Assembly: GCA_028724545.1 (NCBI GenBank)
Contig: JAQYCU010000015.1
Coordinates: 62,001 to 126,000, forward strand
DNA: 64,000 bases
Direction of reading: 5' to 3'
Source of the DNA: a bacterium
GTDB lineage: Bacteria; Bacillota; Clostridia; Lachnospirales; Lachnospiraceae
In this document: positions 16,813-44,253 of the stretch, one piece after another
How positions within the stretch are numbered: the stretch's first letter is position 1
Layout of the letters: the number at the start of each line of letters is the position of its first letter
Position numbers and translations under genes: made by a program
Notes under the pieces: generated by a model
The model's input: the letters and a program-made list of their open reading frames with translations, nothing else
Told to the model about the DNA's origin: nothing
Database searches by the model: none

Positions 16813-16846
16813 TTGTGCAAAAGGATATGTTTGGAGTGAGGGTGTA

Positions 16847-16994
16847 CCTGTCAGCACAGGCTTCCCTTTTCTGTCAAGGGCACGCTCTCGCTGCGCAAAC
16901 TACGCAGCAGTACATAGTATCCTGAAAAACAGGATACAAGTACTGGCGAGTTTGTAAGCACCCTTCGACAGAAAAGAAAGTCTGTGCTGACAGG
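16847..16994. repeat. Composite element copy 1, module A (long hairpin with branched tip)
   Basis: About 148 nt. Outer arms 16847-16880 and 16961-16994 are complementary apart from a bulge and a few mismatches (CCTGTCAGCACAG with CTGTGCTGACAGG, TTCTGTC with GACAGAA, AGGG with CCCT). The tip holds CTCGC...GCGAG closing two hairpins: TGCG-CAAACTA-CGCA and AGTAC/GTACT stacked on TATCCTG/CAGGATA. The loop CAAACT is also complementary to AGTTTG just after GCGAG. The same architecture recurs at 32190-32336 and 43569-43714 with different arm sequences. Orientation as RNA is unknown. Confidence 0.85.
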
Positions 16995-17199
16995 CAATCC
17001 GGTTTGCAGGTAGCAGACGATATACAGATTCTTGTTTTCAGTTATTACCTCCAGAAATCAGATGCTATGCATCTGGCGTAGCACTTTGTGCTACTCCTTT
17101 TTCTGTCGGTATCGTGCCAGGAAAAGCAAATGCCTGCTTCGCAGTCGCTTCCTTTTCCTTTGAGCACGATAACTTTTGTACAATATCCACTTTGTAAAT
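16995..17199. other. Structured spacer between modules A and B of copy 1
   Basis: Non-coding, 205 nt. It holds three further hairpins: CAGATGC-TAT-GCATCTG, GTAGCAC-TTT-GTGCTAC, and a longer one with ATCGTGC/GCACGAT and AGGAAAAG/CTTTTCCT around a CTGC-TTC-GCAG tip. These are not present in the spacers of the other two copies, so this stretch is copy-specific. Confidence 0.6.
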
Positions 17200-17346
17200 G
17201 GGCTGTGATAAAAATAGAGTTTCCTAACAGCAGCTGTTAAAGAAGCACTGGTGCTTAGTTGACGTATTTCGTCAACTTACGCACCACTGTGCTTCTTTCC
17301 AAGCGAGAGCGTGCTGCTGTAGGAAACTCTATTTTATCACATGCCC
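17200..17346. repeat. Composite element copy 1, module B (34-bp stem with internal hairpin)
   Basis: About 147 nt. The arms 17200-17234 and 17313-17346 pair almost completely (GGGC..TGTGATAAAA, AGAGTTTCCTA with TAGGAAACTCT, CAGCAGC with GCTGCTG). Inside is GAAGCAC/GTGCTTC with GGTGC/GCACC, then GTTGACG-TATTT-CGTCAAC. An unpaired AAGCGAGAGCGT precedes the closing arm and is complementary to module A. The mntP promoter begins 13 bases downstream. Confidence 0.85.
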
Positions 17347-17358
17347 TTTAATAAAAAA

Positions 17359-17387
17359 TTGACAGAAATCCCCAAATCTGCTATACT
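17359..17387 (+). promoter_or_regulatory. Sigma-A-type promoter of the mntP operon
   Basis: TTGACA at 17359-17364 and TATACT at 17382-17387 with a 17-base spacer. Initiation near 17394 places the manganese riboswitch at the very start of the transcript. Confidence 0.75.
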
Positions 17388-17393
17388 AGTCAC

Positions 17394-17541
17394 GCAATGA
17401 GGGAGTAGTTAGCGCGAAAGCGTGGCTAAGTCAACAAACTCGACCAGTGGTCTGGCTTAATCTTAAATAACAAGACTCGTGCATAGTGTAAAACTGTGCC
17501 TGAGTCTATAGAAGCAGGTGCATGTTGTACCTGCTTCTTTT
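17394..17541 (+). promoter_or_regulatory. yybP-ykoY family manganese riboswitch with terminator
   Basis: The leader begins with GAGGGAGTAG followed by a GCGCGAAAGCGT hairpin, then GTCAACAAACTCG and an AGACTCGTGC...GCCTGAGTCT hairpin. The GGGAGTAG/GTCAACA layout closely matches known mntP leaders. It ends in a 9-bp GC-rich hairpin (GAAGCAGGT 17511-17519 with ACCTGCTTC 17529-17537) and a short T-run, which looks like an intrinsic terminator. Known members bind Mn2+ and turn expression on. Downstream mntP makes the assignment strong, although I could not run a covariance model. Confidence 0.85.
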
Positions 17542-17670
17542 GGTATGAGAAAAGAAAATCAGAAAATAATAATAGAAAACAGTAGGAAATACTGCTATTA
17601 GAACACTCTGAAAAAAGAAGCAGGATACCGGTAAAACAGAAAAAAGGAAAAACAACAGGAGGAAAGAAAA

Positions 17671-18246
17671 ATGGGTATTGTGGAATTGTTTCTGATAGCC
17701 GTCGGGCTGTCAATGGATGCCTTTGCTGTATCAATTTGCAAGGGACTGGGTATGACAAAGTTTCGTGCCGGAAATGCAACGGTAATTGCATTGTTTTTTG
17801 GAGGGTTTCAGGCATTAATGCCACTGATTGGATGGTTTCTCGGTTCTAGGTTTCAAAAATATATTGTTAACTTTGACCATTGGGTAGCATTTGGACTGCT
17901 TGTATTTATTGGTGTCCAGATGATAATAGAAAGCAGAAAAGAAGAAGAGGAAGTAACAGAAAATGGTGATGTATTAAAGATAAAAGAATTGTTTCTTTTA
18001 GCGATTGCGACCAGCATTGATGCTCTGGCTATAGGCATTACTTTTGCTTTGCTGCCGGGCACGAATATTTGGCTTTCCATTCTTTTAATAGGAATTACAA
18101 CATTTGTGATTTCTTTTGGTGGTGTCGGCATAGGATTCTTTTTTGGAAACAAATACGAAAAAAAAGCGCAGGTTGCCGGTGGAATTATTTTAATTGCATT
18201 AGGAATAAAAATTTTATTAGAACATCTGGGAGTTCTGACTTTCTGA
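17671..18246 (+). CDS. mntP: Manganese efflux pump MntP
   Basis: A 191-residue membrane protein with six predicted helices arranged as an inverted duplication. The paired conserved aspartates are in GLSMDAFAVSI and ATSIDALAIGI, characteristic of MntP (DUF204). It exports Mn2+ and protects against manganese excess. Regulation by the upstream manganese-sensing riboswitch is expected to raise expression when Mn2+ is high. The ATG follows AGGAGG. The gene for a Ca/Na-type antiporter starts 41 bases downstream, so both are probably read from the riboswitch-controlled transcript. Confidence 0.94.
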   Translation: MGIVELFLIAVGLSMDAFAVSICKGLGMTKFRAGNATVIALFFGGFQALMPLIGWFLGSRFQKYIVNFDHWVAFGLLVFIGVQMIIESRKEEEEVTENGDVLKIKELFLLAIATSIDALAIGITFALLPGTNIWLSILLIGITTFVISFGGVGIGFFFGNKYEKKAQVAGGIILIALGIKILLEHLGVLTF

Positions 18247-19270: not shown

Positions 19271-19297
19271 TTAGCACTCTTTTCAAAAGAGTGCTAA
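19271..19297 (+). promoter_or_regulatory. CIRCE operator (perfect)
   Basis: TTAGCACTC-N9-GAGTGCTAA, an exact inverted repeat of the HrcA-binding CIRCE element, located just upstream of the htpG -35 box. Confidence 0.92.
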
Positions 19298-19350: not shown

Positions 19351-19377
19351 TTAGCACTCAACTTGAATGACTGCTAA
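19351..19377 (+). promoter_or_regulatory. Second CIRCE operator (one mismatch)
   Basis: TTAGCACTC-N9-GACTGCTAA, identical to the CIRCE consensus except for one base in the right half-site. It lies about 17 bases after the -10 box, in the transcribed leader. Confidence 0.85.
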
Positions 19378-19426
19378 TTGATAAAAAGAACAAAAAATAG
19401 TAAGAAATAAGATAGGAGAGATGAAT

Positions 19427-21523
19427 ATGCAGAGCAGGACAGGTAGTTTATCAATTGAATCTGAAAATATGTTTCCCATTATAAAGAAATGGCTTTATTC
19501 CGACCATGATATTTTTATTCGTGAGTTAGTTTCCAACGGTTGTGATGCGATTACAAAGTTAAAGAAACTGGAAGTAATGGGAGAATATTCATTCCCTGAT
19601 GACTACAAAGCTGAAATCCAGGTAGTAGTAGACCCAGAAGAAAAGACGATTTCCTTTACAGATAATGGTATCGGTATGACCGATGAGGAAGTAAACGAAT
19701 ATATTAACCAGGTTGCTTTTTCCGGAGCGACAGATTTTCTGGAGAAGTATAAAGATAAAACAAACGAAGAGCAGATTATTGGTCACTTTGGACTTGGATT
19801 TTATTCTGCATTTATGGTAGCAGACACAGTAACCATTGATACACTGTCTTGTCAGGAAGGTGCTGAAGCTGTTCACTGGGAGTCTGAAGGTGGCATTAAT
19901 TTTGAAATGTCAGAAGGAACAAAAGACACCGTTGGTACAACGATTACATTATATCTTTCAGAAGACAGTTTAGAGTTTGCAAACGAGTATCGTGTCCGTG
20001 AAGTCTTAAATAAATACTGTTCATTTATGCCGGTAGAGATTTTCCTTTCCAAAGCAAATGCAGAGCAGGAATATGAAACAATTGATGCAGCAGACCTTCG
20101 TGATGATGATGTCGTTGTAGAAAATATTGTGGAAGAAGCAAAGACGGAAGAACGTGAAAATGAAAATGGAGAAAAAGAGGTTGTAGAAGTATCTCCTCGT
20201 AAGGAAAAGGTAAAAATCAATACGCGTCCGGTATCCATCAGTGATACAACACCGCTCTGGATGAAACATCCAAATGATTGTACAGAGGAAGAGTATAAAG
20301 CATTTTACCATAAAGTATTTAATGATTACAAAGAGCCATTGTTCTGGATTCATTTAAATATGGATTATCCGTTTAACTTAAAAGGTATCCTGTACTTCCC
20401 TAAGGTAAATACAGAATATGATAATCTGGAAGGTGTGATTAAACTTTACAATAATCAGGTATTTATTGCTGATAATATCAAAGAAGTTATCCCTGAGTTC
20501 CTGATGTTGTTAAAGGGTGTTATTGACTGTCCGGACCTTCCTTTGAACGTATCCAGAAGTGCTTTGCAGAATGACGGTTTTGTTAAGAAGATTTCTGACT
20601 ATATCACAAAGAAAGTGGCAGACAAATTATCCGGTATGTATAAGACCGACCGTGAAAACTATGAAAAATACTGGGATGATATCAGCCCATTCATTAAATA
20701 TGGCTGCTTAAAAGATGAAAAATTCAAAGAGAAAATGGAAGAATATATCATCTTTAAAAATCTGGATGATAAATATATTACATTGCCGGAATATGTCGAA
20801 GCAAGAAAAGAGGCAGAGGGTGAAAATACAGATGATGTAAATGAGGAGAAAGAAACAGAAACGACAGAGGAAGCATCAGCAGAAGATAAGGAAAATGATG
20901 ATGACGCTGCGAAGGAAGAAGAGCCAACCACGGTATATTATGTTACGGATATGCAGCAGCAGAGCCAGTACATTAATATGTTCAGAGAGCAGAATATCGA
21001 TGCGGTCATTCTGACACATTCGATTGACCAGCCATTCATTTCGCAGTTAGAGCAGGGCGATTTGAAGGTAAAATTCCAGCGTATTGATGCTGATTTGACT
21101 GACAGTATGACAGAAGAGGTTGATGAGGAAACGGTAAAAGAACAGACAGAATCACTGACAGAAATCTTTAAGAAAGCACTGGGCAAAGAAGAGTTAGAAG
21201 TTAAAGTAGAAAAATTCAAAAATGAAAACATTTCTTCTATGATGACATTGCCGGAAGAAACACGCCGTATGCAGGATATGATGAAGATGTACAGCATGGG
21301 TGGCAACGGTATGGATATGTTCGGTGGTGGAGAAGTTCTGGTACTGAACTCTGCAAACAAATTGGTACAGTACATTCTGGATAATAAGGATGGCGAGCAT
21401 ACGGATTTGTTCTGCAAGCAGTTATATGATTTGGCAATGATTGCACATAAACCACTTCCTGCAGACGAGATGACAGAGTTTGTGGCAAGAAGCAATGAAA
21501 TTATGATGCTTTTGGCAAAATAA
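19427..21523 (+). CDS. htpG: Molecular chaperone HtpG (Hsp90)
   Basis: A 698-residue Hsp90-family ATP-dependent chaperone. The GHKL ATPase domain shows ELVSNGCDAITK, DNGIGMT and GHFGLGFYSAF; the middle domain shows LYFPKVNTEYDN and LNVSRSALQND. Around residues 465-500 is a very acidic low-complexity insertion (EETETTEEAS, DKENDDDAAKEEE) that is longer than in typical HtpG. I chose ATG 19427 because AGGAG sits eight bases upstream; ATG 19421 leaves only two bases. Two CIRCE operators around the promoter indicate HrcA control, whereas htpG in Bacillus subtilis is not in the CIRCE regulon. Confidence 0.95.
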   Translation: MQSRTGSLSIESENMFPIIKKWLYSDHDIFIRELVSNGCDAITKLKKLEVMGEYSFPDDYKAEIQVVVDPEEKTISFTDNGIGMTDEEVNEYINQVAFSGATDFLEKYKDKTNEEQIIGHFGLGFYSAFMVADTVTIDTLSCQEGAEAVHWESEGGINFEMSEGTKDTVGTTITLYLSEDSLEFANEYRVREVLNKYCSFMPVEIFLSKANAEQEYETIDAADLRDDDVVVENIVEEAKTEERENENGEKEVVEVSPRKEKVKINTRPVSISDTTPLWMKHPNDCTEEEYKAFYHKVFNDYKEPLFWIHLNMDYPFNLKGILYFPKVNTEYDNLEGVIKLYNNQVFIADNIKEVIPEFLMLLKGVIDCPDLPLNVSRSALQNDGFVKKISDYITKKVADKLSGMYKTDRENYEKYWDDISPFIKYGCLKDEKFKEKMEEYIIFKNLDDKYITLPEYVEARKEAEGENTDDVNEEKETETTEEASAEDKENDDDAAKEEEPTTVYYVTDMQQQSQYINMFREQNIDAVILTHSIDQPFISQLEQGDLKVKFQRIDADLTDSMTEEVDEETVKEQTESLTEIFKKALGKEELEVKVEKFKNENISSMMTLPEETRRMQDMMKMYSMGGNGMDMFGGGEVLVLNSANKLVQYILDNKDGEHTDLFCKQLYDLAMIAHKPLPADEMTEFVARSNEIMMLLAK

Positions 21524-32132: not shown

Positions 32133-32220
32133 GGTACGCATTGTACCTGCCATCAAAGGCTCCCGGTTCTATCAATGGTACGCATTGTACCTGCCATCAA
32201 AGGCTCTCTGTTCTATCAAT
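32133..32220. repeat. 44-bp tandem duplication of the module A 5' arm (copy 2)
   Basis: Units 32133-32176 and 32177-32220 both read GGTACGCATTGTACCTG, then CCATCAAAGGCTC and TTCTATCAAT, with only a few differences. The second unit runs into module A; the first is a spare 5' arm without a partner. Confidence 0.85.
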
Positions 32221-32336
32221 GGTACGCTCTCGCTGCACAAACTACGCAGCAGTACATAGTATCCTGAAAAACAGGATACAAGTACTGGCGAGTTTGTAAG
32301 CACCATTTTATAGAAAAGGGAGCCTTTGACGGCAGG
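32190..32336. repeat. Composite element copy 2, module A
   Basis: Same architecture as 16847-16994, 147 nt. The arms are CATCAAAGGCTC with GAGCCTTTGACG, and AATGGT with ACCATT, so the stem is kept by different bases from copy 1. The branched core (CTCGC, CAAACTA loop, AGTAC/TATCCTG, GCGAGTTTG) is nearly identical; one stem base changes TGCG to TGCA. Confidence 0.85.
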
Positions 32337-32361
32337 CAATTCAGGTTGTGGGTGCACGCAG

Positions 32362-32581
32362 AAAACAATCGTTGAAAACCTAGCAGAACAGCCAATATGC
32401 AGATGCCGGACGAAAGTTGGAAACAATCATTGAATACCATTAGAACAGCCAACTTGCAGATACTGGATGAAAGCGAAAAACAATCATTGAAACATCAGCA
32501 GAACAGCCAATATGCAGATGCCAGACGAAAGCTGGAAAATAAATAATTGATGAATACCAGTAGAACAGCCACTATGTAAAT
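32362..32581. repeat. Tandem repeat of about 57 bp in copy 2 spacer
   Basis: Four degenerate units begin with AACAATC-type sequence near 32364, 32422, 32479 and 32537 and share AGAACAGCCAATATGCAGATG and GACGAAAGYTGG. The last unit runs directly into module B. Unit length is unlike CRISPR spacing and there is no constant repeat plus variable spacer. Confidence 0.75.
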
Positions 32582-32730
32582 GGGCTGTGATAAAACAAGA
32601 ACTTCCTAAAAAGCAGCTGTTAAACAGACACTGGTGCTTAGTGGACGTTTTATGTCCACTTATGCACCACTGTGCCTGTTTCCAAGCGAGAGCGTGCTGC
32701 TGTAGGAAGTTCTTGTTTTATCACATGCCC
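32582..32730. repeat. Composite element copy 2, module B
   Basis: 149 nt with the same fold as 17200-17346. The stem reads AGAACTTCCTA with TAGGAAGTTCT and CAAG/CTTG where copy 1 has other pairs; the internal hairpin is GTGGAC/GTCCAC where copy 1 has GTTGAC/GTCAAC. AAGCGAGAGCGTGCTGCTGT is conserved. Confidence 0.85.
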
Positions 32731-32753
32731 CCTCACAAAGCACCTGCAAAAAC

Positions 32754-43540: not shown

Positions 43541-43568
43541 GAGAAATGTGGGCATAGGAGTTATTGAA

Positions 43569-43714
43569 CCTGACTGCATAGGCTCCTTTTTCTAATCAGG
43601 GGACGCTCGCGCTGCGCAAACTACGCAGCAGTACATAGTATCCTAAAAAACAGGATACAAGTACTGGCGAGTTTGAAGCCCCCTTTATTAGAAAAAGGAG
43701 CCTATGCAGCCAGG
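43569..43714. repeat. Composite element copy 3, first module A
   Basis: 146 nt. The arms read CTGCATAGGCTCC with GGAGCCTATGCAG, TTCTAAT with ATTAGAA and AGGGG with CCCCT. The core differs from copies 1 and 2 by CTCGCG for CTCTCG and by the loss of one pair in TATCCT, but the CAAACTA loop and GCGAGTTTG are unchanged. Confidence 0.85.
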
Positions 43715-43780
43715 CAATTCAGGTAGAGGTGTCCTAGAGAGAATGTTTTCAAAATTTGTCCAGGGTGTGATACATTCCGT

Positions 43781-43905
43781 TCTAATCAGGGGACGCTCGC
43801 GCTGCGCAAACTACGCAGCAGTACATAGTATCCTAAAAAACAGGATACAAGTACTGGCGAGTTTGAAGCCCCCATTGAATAGAAAAAGGAGCCTATGCAG
43901 CCAGG
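43781..43905. repeat. Composite element copy 3, second (5'-truncated) module A
   Basis: A duplicate of the first module with 190-bp spacing. The core and the 3' arm are complete, but the 5' arm starts only at TCTAATCAGGGG, so the outer half of the stem has no partner. The 3' arm has also diverged (CCCATTGAATAGAAA). Confidence 0.85.
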
Positions 43906-44029: not shown

Positions 44030-44177
44030 TGGCTGTGATAAAAAAAGAACTTCCTAAAAGCAGCTGTTAAACAGACACTGGTGCTTAGTGGACGTCCTAT
44101 GTCCACTTATGCACCACTGTGTCTGTTTCCAAGCGAAAGCGTGCTGCTGTAGGAAGTTCTTTTTTTATCACATGCCC
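44030..44177. repeat. Composite element copy 3, module B
   Basis: 148 nt, same fold as the other module B copies. CAGACAC pairs fully with GTGTCTG and GTGGAC with GTCCAC. The conserved unpaired strand reads AAGCGAAAGCGTG, GAAA replacing the GAGA of copies 1 and 2. Confidence 0.85.
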
Positions 44178-44253
44178 TTCTTATGCACCACTGTGTCTGT
44201 TTCCAAGCGAAAGCGTGCTGCTGTAGGAAGTTCTTTTTTATCACATGCCCTTC
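44178..44253. repeat. Partial 74-bp duplicate of module B 3' half
   Basis: A direct copy of 44106-44179 that keeps GCACCACTGTGTCTG, AAGCGAAAGCGTGCTGCTGT and the closing arm up to CACATGCCC. It lacks the 5' half. The aminotransferase gene ends 10 bases further on. Confidence 0.85.

What the first reader, a model, noticed from the sequence alone, without database searches (positions are those of the whole stretch)
17200..17346. Module B: long stem with covarying arms and two-part internal hairpin
Stem sequence differs between copies (AGAGTTTCC/GGAAACTCT in copy 1, AGAACTTCC/GGAAGTTCT in copies 2 and 3) and so does the inner hairpin (GTTGAC/GTCAAC versus GTGGAC/GTCCAC; GAAGCAC/GTGCTTC versus CAGACAC/GTGTCTG). 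All substitutions keep pairing. The flanks TGTGATAAAA...TTTTATCACA stay constant, so they may act as a recognition end.
Basis: seen in the sequence. Interest (0 to 1): 0.74.

Follow-up and report, generated by a model that had tools for sequence, protein, structure and literature searches.

The report
Mobile hairpin repeats with conserved RNA-like cap
The stretch is one of about 76 copies of a hairpin-forming repeat scattered through this bacterium's genome, and the tip of the hairpin carries a precisely conserved, one-stranded fold that recurs in roughly 40% of sampled genera of the same bacterial family (Lachnospiraceae-like), apparently carried around by small transposons, and matches no RNA family in Rfam.

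Summary
The hairpin is real (folding z = -13; 28 genomic copies, 21 of 48 pairs with double compensatory changes). It is subfamily "B" of a larger repeat family. The neighbouring repeat "A" (16843-17006), read on the minus strand, has the same architecture; A and B sit back-to-back at all three window loci. What is conserved is not the GGGC...GCCC ends but a ~90-nt cap at the hairpin tip: a long P2 stem with a YU bulge, a U.U mismatch and a GUNNUUU loop, plus a mini-hairpin AGC-GNRA-GC (GNRA in 138 of 140 alignment rows). A cap model finds 76 copies here and hits in 137/348 genomes (133/333 genera) of the same family, but none elsewhere in a 391-genome class sample. In 35 hits, mostly from other genera, the structure holds (95.9% of cells paired; 26-47% when slid), and own arms pair far better than swapped arms. 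In two relatives the cap lies at the centre of 274-bp inverted-repeat elements with 7-bp target duplications (11/14 and 7/8 copies). So these look like miniature transposons (MITEs) whose arms change quickly and whose tip is kept. The arms show no significant strand preference; the cap does. Rfam 15 has no match. The cap's function is unknown; an RNA-level role is my leading inference.

The parts
17190..17360 (+). B element (the finding), including conserved flanks outside the GGGC...GCCC stem
   Evidence: BLAST copies and anchored conservation profile
17200..17234 (+). P1 5' arm (sequence-variable outer stem)
   Evidence: Fold; covariation
17239..17298 (+). P2 hairpin of the cap
17302..17312 (+). 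P3 mini-hairpin AGC-GAGA-GC-GT; GNRA-type tetraloop at 17305-17308
   Evidence: GNRA in 138 of 140 alignment rows
17313..17346 (+). P1 3' arm
17230..17318 (+). Cap, match to covariance model R3
   Evidence: 81.3 bits, E 1.2e-19
16843..17006 (-). A element: sister repeat with the same architecture on the opposite strand, pointing away from B
16876..16964 (-). Cap of the A element
   Evidence: 89.4 bits, E 8.5e-22
32186..32348 (-). A element, second composite in the window (cap 32218-32306)
32580..32733 (+).
43565..43726 (-). A element, third composite (cap 43597-43685)
43787..43875 (-). Second A cap, tandem duplicate in the third composite
   Evidence: 85.0 bits
44029..44180 (+).
44180..44252 (+). 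Partial tandem duplicate of the 3' half of B
   Evidence: BLAST; weak R3 match 44153-44222

Best explanation
This is a copy of a non-autonomous, MITE-like palindromic mobile element. Its long arms evolve fast but stay complementary, and its apex carries a conserved, strand-specific ~90-nt structure (the 'cap': P2 hairpin plus GNRA mini-hairpin P3) that defines an apparently unreported repeat family confined, in the genomes sampled, to one bacterial family (Lachnospiraceae-like). Shown: copy number, intergenic dispersal, terminal inverted repeats and 7-bp target duplications in two relatives, different arms carrying the same cap, and no significant orientation bias to genes. Inferred: a transposase encoded elsewhere moves the elements by their outer inverted repeats; the arms stay paired as a DNA palindrome (selection on the inverted repeats and/or template-switch correction); the cap is kept because it works as a folded single strand. 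I think that strand is most likely RNA in read-through transcripts, where the cap could bind a host factor or limit damage done by the hairpin in the transcript. The cap's function is not shown.
For: Repeat nature: about 33 near-full B copies by BLAST and 76 caps in the 2.27-Mb genome. The B copies examined lie between the open reading frames called; tandem-gene orientation is 10 sense to 6 antisense by my tally, and 14 sense, 19 antisense, 12 divergent, 11 convergent in 56 loci from many genera. Mobility: G026 and G217 copies are 274-bp elements with inverted ends (GATGTTAGGGTCAAAAGG-type; GRTTNGGGTGTCAAAAGC-type) and exact flanking direct repeats of 6 bp or more, mostly 7, in 11/14 and 7/8 copies, against about 0.9 after shuffling the flanks. 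Same cap, different arms: A and B in this genome, chimeras with an A element nested in B arms (L187, L225, L226), and G202 elements with different ends. Structure: A1, A2 and A6 pair counts beat shuffles and slid controls on paired cells and double changes; in A6, mostly other genera than the model's training genus, 20 of 23 pairs have double changes and GNRA is 35/35. Strand: GNRA loops and a near-fixed G.U pair closing the P2 loop (33/35 in A6) exist on one strand only; the arms show no significant G.U over A.C bias (B 17:10, A 21:13). Range: 137/348 genomes of the family; 11/391 in a class-wide sample, all 11 in the same family. Not in Rfam 15.
Against: No clean target duplications or agreed termini were established for the A and B copies of this genome, which look old and are often nested; mobility is inferred from relatives. 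No transposase or autonomous partner was identified. No expression data, so RNA action is inference: GNRA-like loops and G.T pairs can also form in single-stranded DNA. The A6 rows were found with a model of this structure, so the pair counts lean towards it. Tandem arrays in Anaerobium acetethylicum (L102) do not look like simple single insertions. About 20% (12) of the 56 to 70 loci scanned had a called open reading frame running across the cap, probably spurious but not resolved.
Confidence: 0.68

Rival explanations
1. A stand-alone regulatory RNA (cis element or small RNA) that happens to be multi-copy; the cap binds a ligand or protein and controls neighbouring genes.
For: Family-wide conserved, covarying, strand-specific fold with GNRA loop. 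In the window the B element lies just upstream of a promoter-like sequence and the mntP leader.
Against: No orientation bias to neighbouring genes (my tally); no recurrent neighbouring gene other than common background families in 110 loci; transposon-type ends and target duplications in relatives.
Confidence: 0.12
2. Single-stranded DNA element: the folded cap is recognised as ssDNA (for example by an HUH/Y1-type transposase, as for REP/REPIN elements) and drives copying.
For: Divergent pairing of caps (23 divergent, 4 tandem, 0 convergent neighbours within 1 kb in this genome) resembles the inverted doublets of REPINs; GNNA loops are also stable in DNA (established knowledge); strong DNA fold.
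Against: Ends with 7-bp target duplications in G026 and G217 point to a cut-and-paste type transposase instead. Loops are GNRA, with no pyrimidine at the third position in 140 rows. Y1 transposase presence was not tested.
Confidence: 0.12
3. Neutral palindrome: arms and tip are kept complementary only by replication template switching, with no selected function; the cap is conserved because copies are recent.
For: Arms show no significant strand preference; partial duplications and P2 deletions typical of hairpin instability occur.
Against: The cap keeps specific unpaired and loop features (GNRA, YU bulge, U.U mismatch, GUNNUUU loop) across genera whose stems have changed almost completely; neutral drift would not preserve these.
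Confidence: 0.06

Closest known systems
MITEs (miniature inverted-repeat transposable elements) of bacteria, e.g. Correia elements, ERIC
   Same: Short, non-coding, palindromic, intergenic, multi-copy; inverted ends and target duplications in G026 and G217.
   Different: A conserved, strand-specific structured tip shared by elements with different arms across many genera; I know of no such cap in Correia or ERIC elements (from memory, not tested).
REP / REPIN repeats with RAYT transposases
   Same: Dispersed intergenic hairpins, often in inverted pairs.
   Different: Much larger (about 90-nt cap on a roughly 35-bp or longer stem); ends with 7-bp duplications in relatives; Y1/RAYT partner not tested.
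BOX elements of Streptococcus pneumoniae
   Same: Modular hairpin repeats with parts present or absent (P2-less short forms).
Palindromic candidate structured RNAs of human microbiomes (PMC8040213)
   Same: Palindromic structured candidates mined from gut metagenomes; that study lists 3161 candidates.
   Different: Two of the palindromic examples in the passage I read are mostly or entirely from Bacteroidetes; its supplementary tables could not be searched here, so prior listing of this motif is not excluded.

Membership tests
MITE | Terminal inverted repeats | tested here: met
   G026 and G217 elements, 274 bp; not established for the A/B copies of the window genome
MITE | Target-site duplication | tested here: met
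   Mostly 7 bp; 11/14 and 7/8 copies in relatives; in the window genome flanks were viewed but no agreed ends or duplications found
MITE | No coding capacity, multi-copy, dispersed | tested here: met
   274 bp in relatives; 76 caps in this genome
MITE | Autonomous partner with the same ends | tested here: inconclusive
   Ends found about 60 times in G026, several at contig edges; no full-length partner seen
REP/REPIN | RAYT (Y1 transposase) partner and 5' GTAG-type hairpin | not tested
   No Y1 family search was run
Known Rfam RNA family | Match to a curated covariance model | tested here: not met
   No match at gathering scores over the window; best sub-threshold match to the element is a miRNA hairpin model (MIR781), 23.6 bits against 88
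Cis-regulatory RNA | Consistent orientation and gene association | tested here: not met
   14 sense, 19 antisense, 12 divergent, 11 convergent in 56 loci; no recurrent partner gene beyond common families

The most novel reading that the evidence does not exclude
The cap is a true RNA module, specific to one bacterial family, that different miniature transposons have acquired at their hairpin tip: a shared RNA device that acts in transcripts through or from the element (docking a host protein or ribosome-related factor, or shielding transcripts) and is therefore under strand-specific selection independent of the transposase.
Probability: 0.35. Interest if true: 0.85.

Novelty: new variant of a known kind. 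Interest (0 to 1): 0.7.

Why it matters
A conserved fold present in about 40% of sampled genera of a major gut bacterial family, up to about 76 copies per genome and absent from Rfam, would be among the most abundant uncharacterised structured elements of these bacteria. Finding the same strand-specific cap on elements with different arms and ends raises a testable question: why would miniature transposons keep an RNA-like structure at their tip?

Tried and rejected
Rfam at gathering and lenient thresholds: nothing convincing. A short 17-base pattern scan of genome contigs mostly gave chance hits; of the 19 loci tested with the cap model only Anaerobium acetethylicum (L102) proved real; that used the one scan. 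Viral contigs: a 27-base B pattern gave no match. Attempt to find an autonomous partner through the G026 ends: no full-length element. Partner-gene search in 110 loci: only common families such as ABC transporters recurred. The first orientation script used too strict a pattern and was redone. Literature: no paper found describing this repeat. Considered and dropped: terminator (no T-run at the element end), CRISPR, integron attC, group II intron, retron (no matching features seen; not tested one by one).

Full report
What was checked. The finding (17200-17346) was read, folded and searched against its own genome. It folds with z = -13.2 as RNA and -12.9 as DNA. BLAST finds about 33 near-full copies of this repeat ('B') and many partial ones in the 2.27-Mb genome. 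The quoted arm and hairpin differences are correct except that copy 2 has GTGCCTG opposite CAGACAC, one A.C mismatch. On 28 copies, 97.5% of cells pair, 21 of 48 pairs have changes on both sides, and no shuffle of 500 reaches any of the five measures.

A and B are one family. A second repeat, A (16843-17006), lies next to B at all three window loci. Read on the minus strand it has the same architecture: long variable outer stem P1, long hairpin P2, and mini-hairpin AGC-GNRA-GC. A gives 98.5% paired cells and 24 of 59 pairs with double changes. The A model finds B copies, and the A and B models find many of the same loci in other species. In A-B loci the two caps point away from each other; over the genome neighbours within 1 kb are 23 divergent, 4 tandem, 0 convergent, and the few pairs noticed in other species are mostly divergent too. 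Short B forms without P2, and A elements nested in B arms, also occur.

The conserved cap. From 45 sequences, all from this genus, a cap model (R3) was built; 20 of 23 pairs show double changes. P2 carries a two-base YU bulge, a U.U mismatch in CUUA/UUAUG and a GUNNUUU loop closed by a near-fixed G.U pair. The family name Lachnospiraceae is my inference, supported by real hits in Anaerobium acetethylicum. In 35 hits drawn mostly from other genera, 95.9% of cells pair against 26-47% when slid, GNRA is 35/35, and own arms pair at -30.1 kcal/mol on average against -12.0 for swapped arms. Over four alignments GNRA is 138 of 140 rows.

Mobility. In G026 (same genus) and G217 (same family) the cap sits at the centre of a 274-bp element with inverted ends and mostly 7-bp flanking repeats: 11 of 14 and 7 of 8 copies, against about 0.9 expected. 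The ends of these two resemble each other (GGGT(GT)CAAAAG) and may belong to one transposon type. G202 carries the cap in elements with different ends, seen by eye only. The repeats are intergenic without significant orientation bias and without a recurrent partner gene beyond common families.

Which strand. In the arms, G.U and A.C cells do not differ significantly (B 17:10, A 21:13), as expected for a DNA palindrome. In the cap, GNRA loops and fixed G.U pairs favour one strand. This suggests that arms and cap are kept by different forces. That the cap acts as RNA is inference; no expression data were available.

Verdict. A real, abundant and, as far as could be checked, unreported family of MITE-like elements with a conserved structured cap. 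Mechanism of movement is inferred from relatives; function of the cap is open. Rfam 15 has no match; no paper describing it was found, but supplementary tables of a large candidate list (PMC8040213) could not be searched.

Noticed in passing
window 17395-17545: Leader of mntP (17671-18246; my annotation) resembles a yybP-ykoY manganese riboswitch; Rfam scores it far below threshold (11 bits against 45), and a promoter-like TTGACA...TATACT lies just after the B element.
   Followed up: partly
window 19271-19297 and 19351-19377: TTAGCACTC...GAGTGCTAA inverted repeats upstream of an HtpG-like gene (19421-21523) look like CIRCE/HrcA operators.
   Followed up: no
window 17044-17176: A third dispersed repeat between A and B, with two further near-full copies and one partial copy in the genome.
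   Followed up: no
L102:2808-3340: Anaerobium acetethylicum carries four tandem caps at 148-bp spacing.
   Followed up: partly
L242:1938-2133, L262:1977-2178: In G001 some caps have a greatly lengthened P2 tip (about 40 extra bases that themselves form a hairpin).
   Followed up: no
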